From a virus: 25,054 bases of DNA. The notes beneath the pieces are model-generated. The model did not search any database and had not been told where the DNA came from. It was given only the letters and a program-made list of their open reading frames with translations. Positions 1-18,546 of the stretch are shown here, piece after piece. The number at the start of each line of letters is the position of its first letter. Position 1 is the stretch's first letter. Location: positions 1 to 25,054 of the IMG/VR virus record IMGVR_UViG_3300032516_000189. One strand, written 5' to 3'. The translations under genes and the position numbers were made by a program.

Positions 1-1
1 T

Positions 2-157
2 GTTAAATCGGATGAAATTTATTATAATAAATGTTTAGAAGAAGCTAATCAAGAAATTATAGTTAAATATTTAGAAGCAGTTGTAGATTCAATTTTAAAA
101 ATGGGATTTCAAATTAAAAATTATATTGAACTTCAAAAATTAAAAAATGGTATTTGA
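2..157 (+). CDS. C-terminal end of an unknown protein, cut by window edge
   Basis: An open frame runs in from the left edge and stops at TGA 155-157, giving the last 51 residues of a protein whose start lies outside the window. The visible part is Glu/Lys-rich and looks helical (for example KYLEAVVDSILKMGFQIKNY); no motif is recognisable. Good reading through the first 150 bases, no internal stop, and a promoter plus strong ribosome binding site just after it argue that this is a true gene end. Function unknown. Confidence 0.6.
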   Translation, partial: VKSDEIYYNKCLEEANQEIIVKYLEAVVDSILKMGFQIKNYIELQKLKNGI

Positions 158-178
158 GTTAAACTTTTGGATGAAAAA

Positions 179-186
179 TATAAATA
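179..186 (+). promoter_or_regulatory. T4-type late promoter before HNH endonuclease
   Basis: Exact TATAAATA followed by CTTTA, matching the T4 late-promoter core. By T4 spacing the transcript would start near 192, just before the AAAGGAGG ribosome binding site and the ATG at 207. No -35 box is needed at such promoters. Octamer is seen; promoter activity is inferred. Confidence 0.7.
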
Positions 187-208
187 CTTTATAAAAGGAG
201 GTATTTAT
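180..208 (+). promoter_or_regulatory. Hairpin masking the HNH endonuclease start
   Basis: ATAAATAC (180-187) pairs perfectly with GTATTTAT (201-208), with a U.G pair possible at each end. The 13-nt loop holds most of the Shine-Dalgarno, and the 3' arm covers the first two bases of the ATG at 207. The 5' arm is part of the late promoter, so a late transcript starting near 192 would lack it. Read-through RNA would form the hairpin and late RNA would not. This is the same logic as at T4 I-TevI. Stem seen, regulation inferred. Confidence 0.5.
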
Positions 209-992
209 GATTATAACAGAAAAAGTAAAAATTAAAGTTACTAAAACATATAGACATTTTGAAGAAAAAGGATATATAATTCCTAAAAAATTTGAGCAAA
301 GAACTAAAAAATATGTAGCAAATTTTGAAGCAGAAATAGAAGTTCTAGTTAAAGATTTACCTAAAAATTCTGTAATAGAAGTAGAATGTAAATGTGATTT
401 GTGTGGAAAAATTAGAATTCAAAAATATTATAGATATAGAGATATTTGTTCAAACTGTATGAGAACTAAAATCCAATTAGGAGAAAACTCTCCTGGTTGG
501 AAACATGGTAATGGTATGAAAAAAGAATGTATTGATTGCGGAACAAAAATACATTGGAACACAAAAAGATGTTCTGTTTGTCGAACTAAATATTTGAAAA
601 GTTTAAATAAATTTTGTACAGATTGTGGTAAACCTATATCAAGACAAGCTAAAAGATGTTCAGCCTGTGCTAATAATGGTAAAAATAATCCAGCATATAA
701 TGAAAATTTAACAGAACAAGATAGAGAAGATCAAAAATATTATAAAGGCATTCATAAATGGAAGACAGAGGTAAGAAAAAAATTTAATTATACCTGTAAA
801 AAATGTGGTAAAAAAGGACATAAAAATTCTGGTATAATTGAATGTCATCATATTAATAATTTTAAAGAATATATTAATTTAAGAATAGATGTTAATAATG
901 GTATAGCTTTATGTCAACAATGTCATAAAGAAATTCATAAAAAATATGGAAAATTAACGAATGAAAAACAATTATTAGAATTTTTGAATTGA
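207..992 (+). CDS. Free-standing HNH homing endonuclease, multi-zinc-finger
   Basis: A 261-residue HNH nuclease, expected to nick or cut DNA at a cognate site and promote its own copying into phages lacking it. The C-terminal HNH domain has paired cysteines C197/C200 and C236/C239, the H214-H215 pair, N230/N231 and H240/H244. Upstream are three more CxxC zinc-ribbon pairs (C63/C66 with C81/C84; C108/C111 with C122/C125; C137/C140 with C151/C154), probably DNA-reading modules. The middle carries SPGWKHG, like the NPxWKGG motif common in phage HNH proteins. The first ~90 residues resemble those of the second endonuclease (17761), including GYIIP and the CDxCG turn, so the two share a targeting domain but differ in the middle. 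AAAGGAGG sets the start. It has its own late promoter and a start-masking hairpin. Confidence 0.9.
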   Translation: MIITEKVKIKVTKTYRHFEEKGYIIPKKFEQRTKKYVANFEAEIEVLVKDLPKNSVIEVECKCDLCGKIRIQKYYRYRDICSNCMRTKIQLGENSPGWKHGNGMKKECIDCGTKIHWNTKRCSVCRTKYLKSLNKFCTDCGKPISRQAKRCSACANNGKNNPAYNENLTEQDREDQKYYKGIHKWKTEVRKKFNYTCKKCGKKGHKNSGIIECHHINNFKEYINLRIDVNNGIALCQQCHKEIHKKYGKLTNEKQLLEFLN

Positions 993-994
993 TT

Positions 995-1051
995 ATTTAT
1001 TTTCTATAAATAGTTAAGTATATAAGATATAACTATTTATAGGAGATAAAT
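995..1051 (+). promoter_or_regulatory. 22-bp hairpin burying the uvsW ribosome binding site
   Basis: Bases 995-1016 pair with 1030-1051 without a break: 20 Watson-Crick pairs plus two U.G pairs (1003/1043, 1001/1045), around a 13-nt loop (1017-1029). The inner 13 bp, CTATAAATAGTTA against its exact complement, are perfect. The 3' arm contains the whole AGGAG (1041-1045) and ends two bases before the TTG start at 1053. The 5' arm contains a late-promoter core at 1005-1012 whose predicted start, about 1018, lies in the loop. RNA arriving from upstream would thus be masked and late RNA would be translatable. The 3' arm also reads TATAAATA on the minus strand. Confidence 0.8.
1005..1012 (+). promoter_or_regulatory. 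T4-type late promoter before uvsW
   Basis: Exact TATAAATA inside the 5' arm of the 995-1051 hairpin; predicted transcript start near 1018. T4 uvsW itself is known to be made from a late promoter, which fits this placement. Confidence 0.75.
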
Positions 1052-1052
1052 T

Positions 1053-2549
1053 TTGGAAAAAATTATTGTTGAAAAATTGAATCAAGTGTATTTTAAAATA
1101 CGATGTGATAGTTCACAAAGTATGGAACTTAAAAATTATTTTTCGTATTATATTCCTAATTATTGGTTTTCGCCACGTTTTAAAAATAAAGTTTGGGATG
1201 GAAAAGTTTCATCTTATAATCGCCAATCCCAAACCTTACCTATAGGTTTATATCCAATGTTGAAGCAATTTTGTATTCATTATGGATATGAACTAGTCTT
1301 AGATTTTGATAAAACTAATATGTTTAATCAGATAGAAGATGAAGATATACAAAAATTTTATGAAACAATTTTTACAGATACAAAGTATTATCCAAGAGAT
1401 TATCAAGCAGAAACTATTTTAAAAGCTTTAAAATATAAACGTGGAGTAATAGAATCACCAACTGGTTCTGGAAAATCGATTGTCATATATTCGATTATTA
1501 GATTTATATTAGGAATAACCGAAGGTAAAATATTACTTATAGTACCAAATGTAAGTCTAGTCAACCAAATGTTTAATGATTTTAAAGATTATGGTTGGAC
1601 TGCATGTGAATCATATACAAATATACTTTATAGTGGTAAAAAGCCCGATTGGAGTAAACCTATATTAATTTCTACATGGCAATCTGTTTATAAGAAGACT
1701 AGTTCTTTTTTTGAAAGTTTTAATGCTGTTATAGTTGATGAAACTCATGGGGCAAAAGCTAATTCAATTAAATCTGTTTTAGAAAAATGTACAGGAGCAG
1801 ATTATAGAATTGGATTGACAGGAACTTTACCTACAGAGAAATCAGATATTTATACAATATATGGGTATATAGGACCAAAAATATATGAAATTTCATCTAA
1901 AGAATTGATGGATAAAGGTATTTTATCTAAGATTAAGATAGCTAATTTATTATTACAATATTCAGAAGATGAGATTGCAACTAATAAACATAGAACTTAT
2001 GATGAAGAAGTTCGATTCTTAGTAGATCACCCTAAAAGAAATGGTGTTTTTAAGTATATAATAGACCATATTAATCCTGAAGAGAATGTTCTAATATTAT
2101 GTTATTTAATAGATCATTTAAAAAGTATTAAAAGTTATTTAGAAAAGATATATCCAAATAAAAAAATTCAAGAAATTTATGGTGAAATAGATGCCGATAA
2201 AAGAGAACAAATAAGGATAGGAATGGAGAATAGTAAAGGGGTAATCTTACTTGGCACATATGCTACAATGGGCATAGGAATTAATATAAAAAGGTTACAT
2301 CATGTAATTTTTGCTAGTAGTTATAAATCTAAGATTAAAATCTTACAAAGCATAGGTAGAGGACTTAGAACCCACGAATCTAAAACTAAATTGATCCTTT
2401 GGGATATTGTAGACGATCTTACTTATGTCAAAAGAACAGGTACAATAGGTAAGAATTATGTATATGAACATTTTGAGCAAAGACTAGAATATTATAAAAC
2501 ACAAGAGTTCTCATATATTAATAAGAACATAATAGTAAAAAATTTATAA
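1053..2549 (+). CDS. uvsW: UvsW-like superfamily 2 DNA helicase
   Basis: A 498-residue protein, against about 503 in T4. UvsW unwinds R-loops, D-loops and branched DNA, and in T4 drives the switch from origin-dependent to recombination-dependent replication. The N-terminal DNA-binding domain (about 1-85) matches the UvsW type, with YWFSPRFKNKVWDGKV followed by LPIGLYPMLKQFC. Helicase motifs appear in order: Walker A TGSGKS (137-142), DETH box (229-232), GLTGTLP (254-260), and QSIGRGLR (432-439) with its arginine finger. The start is TTG at 1053, 7 bases after AGGAG; no better ATG lies nearby, and the family N-terminus begins at once. Expression appears gated by a 22-bp hairpin with an embedded late promoter. 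Its TAA overlaps the next late promoter. Confidence 0.95.
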   Translation: MEKIIVEKLNQVYFKIRCDSSQSMELKNYFSYYIPNYWFSPRFKNKVWDGKVSSYNRQSQTLPIGLYPMLKQFCIHYGYELVLDFDKTNMFNQIEDEDIQKFYETIFTDTKYYPRDYQAETILKALKYKRGVIESPTGSGKSIVIYSIIRFILGITEGKILLIVPNVSLVNQMFNDFKDYGWTACESYTNILYSGKKPDWSKPILISTWQSVYKKTSSFFESFNAVIVDETHGAKANSIKSVLEKCTGADYRIGLTGTLPTEKSDIYTIYGYIGPKIYEISSKELMDKGILSKIKIANLLLQYSEDEIATNKHRTYDEEVRFLVDHPKRNGVFKYIIDHINPEENVLILCYLIDHLKSIKSYLEKIYPNKKIQEIYGEIDADKREQIRIGMENSKGVILLGTYATMGIGINIKRLHHVIFASSYKSKIKILQSIGRGLRTHESKTKLILWDIVDDLTYVKRTGTIGKNYVYEHFEQRLEYYKTQEFSYINKNIIVKNL

Positions 2550-17398: not shown

Positions 17399-17752
17399 AT
17401 GCCAAGTGCAGTAGTCAAATCATTTGCAAAGAAATCTGGTAAGAATGTAAAAGAAATTGAGAAGATGTGGAATAAAGTATTAGCAAAAGTTAAAGAAACA
17501 TATGAAGATAAAGATGATGATGAAATTTATGCTATTGTCACAGGTATCTTGAAAAAGAATTTAAAAATTCAAGAAGAAGATTCTGCGGCAGCAATTACAA
17601 CATCAACAGCAGGAGATGTATCATCATATGGTGGAGCAGGAAATTTTGCTCCAAAACTAAGTACAGTTTTGTCCCGAATTGGCGATTTTAAACCTAAAAA
17701 GAAAAAGAAAGTTAATGAAGTAAATGAATATATTGATACATTTGTTTTTTAA
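17399..17752 (+). CDS. Small helical protein with basic tail, phage family
   Basis: A 117-residue protein. The first ~58 residues are a helical domain beginning MPSAVVKSFAKKSGKNVKEI and ending DEIYAIVTGILKKNLKI, a type I recall from several T4-like and jumbo phages, function unknown to me. Then a low-complexity Ala/Thr/Ser/Gly segment (AAAITTSTAGDVSSYGG) and a Lys run (KPKKKKK) before NEVNEYIDTFVF. The basic tail could contact DNA. GAGGAG sets the start. It is the gene into whose downstream gap the second homing endonuclease seems to have been inserted. Confidence 0.75.
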   Translation: MPSAVVKSFAKKSGKNVKEIEKMWNKVLAKVKETYEDKDDDEIYAIVTGILKKNLKIQEEDSAAAITTSTAGDVSSYGGAGNFAPKLSTVLSRIGDFKPKKKKKVNEVNEYIDTFVF

Positions 17753-17760
17753 GGATTTAT

Positions 17761-18546
17761 ATGCTTGTATCAAAAAAAATTAAAGTTAATTTACATCCAA
17801 GAAATATAAAGTATTTTGAATCTTTAGGATATATAATACCTAGATTTTTAGATAAATGGGGAAGAATGGTTGTAATTAAAGGAACAAAATTAGAAGTCAA
17901 TATTAAAGATTTAATGAAAAATTCTCCTATTAAAGTATTAAGAAGGTGTGATAATTGTGGTGAAATAAAAAAAATTTCATGGATGAATTATTTCGATAGG
18001 TGTCAAAAATGTGCTAGAACAAAATATACACTTGATAATGTTATAGAAATTTTTAAAAAAGAAAATTGCAAATTATTAAGTTTAACCTATAATAATGTAT
18101 ATGAAAAATTAGAATATATTTGTAATTGTGGAAATAAATCAATTATAACATTGAGTAATTTTTTAAATGGACATAGATGTAATATATGTGGCTTAGAAAA
18201 ACGTATAGAATCTTCAAGGAAAAAAATAACAGAAGAAGATAGATTACGAGCAAAAAATGAAAAAAGAGAAAGAACTAAATTAGAACAACAACGATGGAAA
18301 AATATAATTAAAAGAAGAGATAATTATAAATGTCAAATATGTGGATATCAAGGTAAATTGCTTGATAATTTCATGAATGCCCATCATATAGAATCTTTTT
18401 TAAATAATAAAGAATTAAGATTGGATATAAATAACGGAATAACATTTTGTCATAAATGTCATAGAAAATTTCATAATAAATATGGAATTAAAAATAATAA
18501 TGAAAAACAGTTTAATGAATTTTTATTAATTGAAAAAGGAGTATAA
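17761..18546 (+). CDS. Free-standing HNH homing endonuclease, second copy
   Basis: A 261-residue HNH nuclease. The N-terminal ~90 residues parallel those of the first one (KIKVN..., GYIIP, EVNIKDLMKNSPIKV, RRCDNCG, CQKCARTKY). Residues 91-145 form a different module (LDNVIEIFKKENCKLLSLTY ... YICNCGNKS ... GHRCNICG), a zinc-ribbon repeat type known from phage endonucleases of the DUF723-like class. The C-terminal HNH core has C191/C194, H208-H209, N224/N225, C230/C233, H234 and H238. Domain swapping between the two genes is therefore visible. It lies in the gap before the portal gene; its last codons supply the portal's AAGGAG, and only three bases separate the two genes. No late promoter precedes it. 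Confidence 0.9.
   Translation: MLVSKKIKVNLHPRNIKYFESLGYIIPRFLDKWGRMVVIKGTKLEVNIKDLMKNSPIKVLRRCDNCGEIKKISWMNYFDRCQKCARTKYTLDNVIEIFKKENCKLLSLTYNNVYEKLEYICNCGNKSIITLSNFLNGHRCNICGLEKRIESSRKKITEEDRLRAKNEKRERTKLEQQRWKNIIKRRDNYKCQICGYQGKLLDNFMNAHHIESFLNNKELRLDINNGITFCHKCHRKFHNKYGIKNNNEKQFNEFLLIEKGV
18426..18433 (+). promoter_or_regulatory. Possible late promoter inside HNH gene, before portal
   Basis: Exact TATAAATA followed by ACGG, within the HNH codons for DINNG, about 120 bases before the portal ATG. Such octamers also occur by chance in AT-rich coding DNA, so only weak support; it would give the portal gene a promoter independent of the endonuclease. Confidence 0.25.

What the first reader, a model, noticed from the sequence alone, without database searches (positions are those of the whole stretch)
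180..208. Homing endonuclease start masked by a late-promoter hairpin
Seen: ATAAATAC of the late promoter pairs perfectly with GTATTTAT overlapping the ATG; the loop holds the Shine-Dalgarno; late RNA would start in the loop near 192. Known: I-TevI of T4 is controlled in this way. Inference: independent or shared use of the same switch to delay a toxic nuclease.
Basis: partly seen in the sequence, partly recalled or inferred. Interest (0 to 1): 0.55.

Follow-up and report, generated by a model that had tools for sequence, protein, structure and literature searches.

The report
Late-phase RNA lock on phage genes
A T4-like phage appears to hide the start sites of a mobile DNA-cutting enzyme gene and of the repair helicase gene next to it inside RNA hairpins that should open only late in infection, a known T4 trick found here on two neighbouring genes.

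Summary
In detail: ATAAATAC (180-187) pairs with GTATTTAT (201-208), ATG at 207, T4-type late promoter TATAAATA at 179-186. In read-through RNA the hairpin covers the Shine-Dalgarno (SD) and ATG; RNA from about 192 is open. Alone it is only modestly beyond chance (95 of 3000 random leaders do as well). Only 3 of 10 uvsY-uvsW records have it. The mechanism is known for T4 e, I-TevI/II/III and segB: the HNH gene is a new member, and I found no mention of uvsW under it. The HNH orthologue in another phage led to a different leader: a covarying three-way-junction RNA whose P2 loop pairs with the SD in 28 of 31 copies, in 11 contigs, before homing-endonuclease-type genes or fragments, without an Rfam match. 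It is not in the window.

The parts
2..157 (+). 3' end of uvsY (recombination mediator), co-oriented gene whose transcripts could read into the HNH gene and uvsW
   Evidence: PHROG 231 UvsY, E 1.4e-8 for the peptide encoded by 2-154
179..186 (+). T4-type late promoter TATAAATA of the HNH gene
   Evidence: 9 of 12 forward TATAAATA sites in the window lie 18-80 nt before an SD-bearing start of an ORF of 60 aa or more
179..209 (+). predicted RNA hairpin: stem 179-190/198-209, loop 191-197; covers most of SD 197-201 and the ATG
192..192 (+). approximate late transcription start, inferred from T4 spacing (recalled), not mapped
   Evidence: inference; RNA 192-257 has no hairpin over the SD
207..992 (+). 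free-standing HNH endonuclease gene, 261 aa, between uvsY and uvsW
   Evidence: Pfam HNH PF01844 25.8 bits, cut-off 21.4; PHROG 5104 and HNH families; absent at this site in L015
995..1051 (+). second, stronger predicted hairpin before uvsW: arms 995-1016 and 1030-1051, 22 bp
   Evidence: -20.5 kcal/mol, z -6.6, 0 of 200 shuffles; pair list
1005..1012 (+). late promoter TATAAATA inside the 5' arm of the uvsW hairpin
1041..1045 (+). SD AGGAG of uvsW inside the 3' arm
1053..2549 (+). uvsW, helicase, 498 aa, TTG start
   Evidence: Pfam UvsW_N 50.9 bits, ResIII, Helicase_C

Best explanation
Two adjacent genes carry the T4 'late promoter inside an RBS hairpin' switch. RNA that reads through from uvsY includes the 5' arms, so one hairpin closes over the SD and start codon of the HNH gene and a second closes over the SD of uvsW, and neither is translated well. 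Once the late sigma factor uses the promoters embedded in the two 5' arms, RNA starts too far downstream to form the hairpins, and both proteins are made. For uvsW the likely purpose is to keep an R-loop-unwinding helicase off until origin replication is over, although uvsW sits behind a gene expected to be needed earlier. For the HNH gene it is late-only expression, as for other T4-type homing endonucleases. Shown: sequence anatomy, predicted folds, a relative without the HNH gene, pairing kept in two relatives of uvsW. Inferred: read-through RNA from uvsY, the late start points, and the effect on translation.
For: Cost of opening SD-to-start is 10.3 kcal/mol (HNH) and 14.2 (uvsW) in read-through RNA against 0.4 and 2.7 in late RNA; the differences rank 2 and 1 of 9 late genes of the window, the next being 3.1. 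The same scan puts e and I-TevII on top in T4, with gene 26 next. Swapping leaders among the 9 genes never reaches 9.9 (0 of 72; best 7.4). The uvsW hairpin is kept in L015 (-22.6, z -6.3) and L011 (-23.5, z -6.2), the latter with different sequence; between window and L015 three outer pairs (-3, -5, -7) change on both sides and stay paired. In L011's 56-kb record the scan finds only two genes: uvsW (7.1) and a zinc-finger gene with HNH-endonuclease PHROG similarity (11.4) under a 24-bp hairpin. L015 lacks the HNH gene; over 157 nt of uvsY compared, identity is 100% in the first 120 nt and 70% in the last block, and 65% in the first 40 nt of uvsW. T4 UvsW is made from a late promoter and unwinds origin R-loops (PMC3016281, passages).
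Against: No transcript data; early or middle promoters upstream were not looked for, and the window begins inside uvsY. The HNH hairpin alone is about p 0.03. Of ten records in which a UvsY gene (PHROG 231 in all ten) precedes uvsW, directly or with an HNH gene between, only window, L015 and L011 have the uvsW hairpin; L010, L013, L019, L190, L193 and L201 have uvsW within 30 nt of uvsY or overlapping it and no exact TATAAATA before it, and L020 has an HNH gene and no uvsW hairpin. L018 has TATAAATA but another upstream gene and weak masking (1.5). L015's uvsW scores only 5.2 on the opening measure although its fold is strong. The scan is neither complete nor specific: in the 16 of 20 T4 rows listed, soc scores 3.8 and I-TevI, I-TevIII, segB and 49 do not appear, while gene 51 scores 8.2 and gene 24 6.6, which the passages I saw do not name as switched.
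Confidence: 0.75

Rival explanations
1. Chance in a 27% GC genome: late promoter TATAAATAC and a common start region GTATTTATG happen to be complementary, so the HNH hairpin forms but was not selected.
For: 95 of 3000 random leaders mask the HNH start as well; near-identical promoter-to-ATG modules occur elsewhere, e.g. before an unknown gene in G004.
Against: Does not explain uvsW (2 of 3000), its retention in L015 and L011 or the hairpin gene of L011's phage. Even if unselected, the pairing could still act.
Confidence: 0.17
2. DNA-level inverted repeat: divergent late promoters or an operator (I-TevI-like autorepression), not an RNA switch.
For: The minus strand also reads TATAAATA at 1041-1034. 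In Serratia phage PS2 (L285) TATAAATA and its reverse complement lie between divergent inh and uvsW. I-TevI represses its own late promoter (PMC2988022, passages).
Against: The neighbouring gene upstream is co-oriented, not divergent. L011's 3' arm does not read TATTTATA, and the pairing extends over the SD with G.U pairs, which a DNA site would not need.
Confidence: 0.06
3. The hairpin between the HNH gene and uvsW is an RNA-processing or termination signal.
For: It lies between two genes and is strong.
Against: AT-rich stem with no U tract after it, SD inside the 3' arm, late promoter in the 5' arm; a like hairpin is present in L015 without the HNH gene.
Confidence: 0.04

Closest known systems
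T4 I-TevI, I-TevII, I-TevIII, segB and Aeh1 mobE late-promoter hairpins (PMC2988022, passages seen)
   Same: Homing endonuclease whose SD is in a hairpin in upstream-initiated RNA; late promoter placed so that late RNA lacks the inhibitory structure
   Different: Here a free-standing HNH gene of the PHROG 5104 type between uvsY and uvsW in an unnamed AT-rich T4-like virus record; prediction only
T4 gene e (lysozyme), soc, 49 (PMC3014915, passages seen)
   Same: Ordinary phage genes under the same switch; the window HNH promoter-to-ATG module resembles that of e
   Different: Here the ordinary gene is uvsW; a search for uvsW with late promoter and hairpin gave two papers, neither of which describes this in the passages seen
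T4 segE-uvsW
   Same: A homing endonuclease gene sits directly upstream of uvsW
   Different: segE is GIY-YIG and inh is divergent; the review names segE among genes whose coding region holds promoters for the gene downstream; I recognised no late-promoter hairpin over the uvsW SD in T4

Membership tests
T4-type late-promoter/RBS-hairpin switch | late promoter lies within the 5' arm of the inhibitory hairpin | tested here: met
   179-186 and 1005-1012
T4-type late-promoter/RBS-hairpin switch | SD and/or start codon sequestered in read-through RNA, free in late RNA | tested here: met
   by prediction only: opening cost 10.3 to 0.4 and 14.2 to 2.7 kcal/mol
T4-type late-promoter/RBS-hairpin switch | early or middle RNA reads through the gene from upstream | tested here: inconclusive
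   co-oriented uvsY lies directly upstream; its promoters lie outside the window and were not tested
T4-type late-promoter/RBS-hairpin switch | translation repressed early, released late | not testable with these tools
   needs expression data
free-standing HNH homing endonuclease | HNH domain | tested here: met
   PF01844 above its cut-off
free-standing HNH homing endonuclease | present in one phage, absent at the same intergenic site in a close relative | tested here: met
   L015: uvsY stop 2932, uvsW ATG 2998, no HNH gene
free-standing HNH homing endonuclease | cuts the empty allele and promotes its own transfer | not testable with these tools
   local drop in identity at the junction is compatible but not proof

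The most novel reading that the evidence does not exclude
In this phage lineage homing endonucleases of unrelated nuclease types are held under RNA-locked late leaders that travel with them. Class A is the late-promoter hairpin of the window. Class B is a new structured RNA: a late promoter, then a three-way junction (conserved GACAG / UUU / AUUA) whose P2 loop pairs with the SD as a pseudoknot, and which stays in the late RNA, so it would need a trans factor, a ligand or the ribosome to open it.
Probability: 0.65. Interest if true: 0.75.

Novelty: new member of a known kind. Interest (0 to 1): 0.5.

Why it matters
It extends a T4 paradigm to another lineage and to uvsW, which in T4 is made from a late promoter and unwinds the R-loops used by replication origins. 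Where uvsY and uvsW are in tandem, as here, a hairpin would uncouple them. The side finding, a leader RNA shared by several endonuclease types, would be a regulatory cassette for phage homing genes and a marker for finding their remnants.

Tried and rejected
Rfam: nothing at gathering score on the window and ten loci, nothing on window 140-1080 at E <= 1. tRNA search: none. HNH relatives by a single-sequence scan: one weak locus. Class-B model on window 1-1100 with filters off: best 6 bits, E 0.8, so the window HNH gene does not have class B. The MAFFT alignment of the uvsW leaders misplaced L011, so I compared pair lists. Nine further named phages were checked by eye for a uvsW hairpin: I recognised no SD-masking late-promoter hairpin; of these PS2 and Whisky have an exact TATAAATA upstream. 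A scan of bacterial genome contigs gave 9 uvsW loci, not examined further. The idea that the second window HNH gene (17761-18546) has the switch was dropped: it starts 8 nt after the preceding ORF and I saw no late promoter in 17600-17760.

Class-B caveats. In the four leaders first seen I noticed the loop-SD match by eye; the descriptor requires it. One search gave 11 hits in 1.88 Mb, of which 3 (L018, L048, L278) looked like chance; one search gave 15, of which L034 looked like chance. One search applied the two patterns without asking for that match and listed 17 stretches with P1 of 6 or more: 13 before a gene start, two (L294, L300 at 19860) before fragments, two (L366, L396) with no late promoter within one mismatch, taken as chance and dropped. 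Seven of the 13 (L312, L313, L320, L335, L338, L348, L369) were found through the patterns, not through the descriptor, and all seven have a match of 5 or 6 nt. 15 of the 32 model hits built the model and one (L319) is an identical duplicate, so 16 are independent of it. In a first count 22 of 31 hits had a loop-SD match of 5 or more; that count used only GATTA as anchor. With AATTA allowed and a wider loop window, six more have one of 6 or 7 nt, each next to a G-rich SD; the wider window makes chance matches somewhat easier. The late-promoter octamer within about 20 nt before P1 is exact in 20 of 31, one mismatch in 7, two in 4; two mismatches mean little in such AT-rich DNA.

Full report
What the window is. 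A 25,054-base virus record, 27.4% GC, T4-like: gp20 portal, gp21 protease, gp23 capsid and UvsW are recognised by Pfam. It begins inside uvsY.

The observation. TATAAATA 179-186, ATAAATAC 180-187, GTATTTAT 201-208 and ATG 207 are as described. The fold extends the stem over the SD (179-190 with 198-209), so the SD is mostly in the stem rather than the loop. z is -4.1 with 0 of 200 shuffles as stable, but a stem of this length on the promoter arises in 3.1% of 2000 shuffles and 95 of 3000 random leaders mask the start equally. I treat the HNH hairpin as real, with modest evidence of selection by itself.

The neighbour. Between the HNH gene and uvsW, 995-1016 pairs with 1030-1051: 22 bp, -20.5 kcal/mol, z -6.6. 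TATAAATA 1005-1012 is in the 5' arm and the SD of uvsW (1041-1045) in the 3' arm. Random leaders reach its masking in 2 of 3000 cases, and 0 of 2000 shuffles give its 13-bp perfect stem. RNA from 192 or 1019 onward has no hairpin over the SD in the minimum-energy fold.

A scan with a control. For exact TATAAATA sites followed within 18-80 nt by an SD and an ORF of 60 aa or more I computed the cost of opening SD-to-start in read-through RNA minus that in late RNA. T4 as control: e 14.9 and 12.5 (two promoters), I-TevII 13.2, gene 26 10.5, gene 51 8.2, gene 24 6.6, soc 3.8; I-TevI, I-TevIII, segB and 49 are not among the 16 of 20 rows listed. Window: uvsW 11.5, HNH 9.9, then 3.1 (9 rows). L011's record: a zinc-finger gene 11.4 and uvsW 7.1 (2 rows). 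Record of L010 (G002, 23 rows): an unknown gene 12.2, an HNH gene 11.5, an endonuclease 8.9; record of L013 (G004, 9 rows): a likely orthologue of the unknown gene 7.0 (families; orthology by eye). With L276 (1 row, uvsW 5.2), L277 (5), L278 (5) and L279 (3), 8 of 57 rows reach 7: four nuclease-type genes, two uvsW and the two unknown genes. The gene of L011's phage is called nuclease-type on PHROG 1271 'HNH endonuclease' similarity (E 3.6e-21); Pfam shows no nuclease domain in it.

Relatives. L015 (UvsW residues 1-79, 85% identical) lacks the HNH gene: uvsY ends at 2932 and uvsW starts at 2998. Its uvsW hairpin is kept (-22.6, z -6.3), and L011 at 55% identity has one of different sequence (-23.5, z -6.2). 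Against this, L010, L013, L019, L190, L193 and L201 have uvsW within 30 nt of uvsY or overlapping it and no exact TATAAATA before it, and L020 has an HNH gene directly before uvsW and no hairpin there. The upstream gene is UvsY (PHROG 231) in all ten of these records, window included, so three of ten have the hairpin. Window and L015 are identical over 120 nt of uvsY but 70% and 65% identical in the blocks next to the junction, and three outer pairs of the uvsW hairpin differ on both sides while staying paired.

Literature. Passages of PMC2988022 and PMC3014915 describe this switch for I-TevI/II/III, segB, Aeh1 mobE, e, soc and 49, and report that removing the I-TevI hairpin did not reduce viability but impaired td intron splicing. 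Passages of PMC3016281 state that T4 UvsW is expressed from a late promoter and unwinds origin R-loops. A search for uvsW + late promoter + hairpin returned two papers. In the first, the passages shown name uvsW only as segE's target and neighbour; in the second, a jumbo-phage survey, the hairpins are protein hairpins. In T4 segE lies directly before uvsW, so this place has probably received unrelated homing endonucleases more than once (inference).

The other leader. The HNH gene of L020/L100, 46% identical to the window HNH and at the same site, has no TATAAATA hairpin. Its leader resembles those of HNH genes in G002: a late-promoter-like octamer, then helix P1, GACAG, a short hairpin P3, UUU, hairpin P2 whose loop matches the SD, AUUA, P1'. 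A descriptor found 7 in G002 and none in three shuffles. Two pattern scans added contigs. On 15 aligned leaders the three helices pair in 88.3% of cells with 57 two-sided changes; covariation 0.629 against 0.245 shuffled, 0 of 500. Rfam has no match at gathering for L100, L101, L103 and L105 and none up to E 5 for the one leader tested that way. A covariance model gives 32 hits in 43 sources, 730 kb, none in the window or T4; L313 and L319 are identical there, leaving 31 in 11 contigs, 17 of them in G002. In 82 other loci, 376 kb, the only hit has E 0.47.

What follows class B. Of the 31, 22 precede an ORF of 190 aa or more and 9 a fragment under 60 aa. Nine of the 22 were scanned and all nine match PHROGs annotated as homing or HNH endonucleases; L302:9404 and L100 have Pfam HNH, and L103 and L105 matched PHROG 5104: 13 of 13 tested. 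Three of the scanned ones (L273, L298, L293) match PHROG 314 'homing endonuclease', and in L293 Pfam GIY-YIG falls just under its cut-off. The other nine long ORFs were judged by eye; L369's is not recognisable. The fragments were judged by eye only. Loop-SD complement: own 6 nt or more in 14 of 17 against 9 of 270 swapped pairs. Over all 31, 28 have 5-7 nt: 22 of the 22 before long ORFs and 6 of the 9 before fragments; the three without (L294 at 7091, L300 at 19850, L307) lie before fragments, as expected of decaying copies. Three paper searches (homing endonuclease with riboswitch and pseudoknot; with structured RNA and T4-like; with noncoding RNA and covariation) listed nothing whose title or abstract start points to such a leader (listings only).

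Verdict. The class-B RNA is the most novel outcome but lies outside the window.

Noticed in passing
L300:18809-18898 (+), L301:11353-11443 (+), L312:2583-2671 (-), L273:14341-14431 (-), L279:8095-8183 (+) and others: Class-B leader: a covarying three-way-junction RNA, mostly just 3' of a late promoter and 5' of homing-endonuclease-type genes or fragments, with a P2-loop/SD match in 28 of 31 distinct copies in 11 contigs; no Rfam match for those tested.
   Followed up: yes
L273:11542-12372 (-): Zinc-finger gene with HNH-endonuclease PHROG similarity behind a dUTPase gene, under a 24-bp late-promoter hairpin, in the phage that also has the uvsW hairpin and one class-B leader.
   Followed up: partly
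L297:3614 (+) and G004 about 25558 (-): Unknown 186/191-aa gene (no PHROG hit for the first) with a late-promoter hairpin in both phages; nearly the same promoter-to-ATG module as the window HNH gene.
   Followed up: partly
L013:2983-4812 (+): uvsW interrupted by an apparent intein (Pfam Intein_splicing above cut-off) within what reads as its DExH motif.
   Followed up: partly
L015:1342-2523 (+): Phage-borne lysine-2,3-aminomutase-like radical SAM gene directly upstream of uvsY (Pfam LAM_C).
   Followed up: partly
window 17761-18546 (+) and L113: Second HNH gene of the same PHROG family before the portal gene, with no late promoter seen; another contig (L113) has the same upstream sequence before a related gene.
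   Followed up: no
L134, L141, L143, L155, about 80 bases before the match start: Another shared, apparently structured leader (TTGTTGGATA...ACC.ACC) before HNH-type genes of other phages.
   Followed up: no
L285 about 1157-1182; L017 22-44: Late promoter followed by its own reverse complement between divergent inh and uvsW (Serratia PS2) or inh and segE (T4), perhaps paired divergent late promoters (inference).
   Followed up: no
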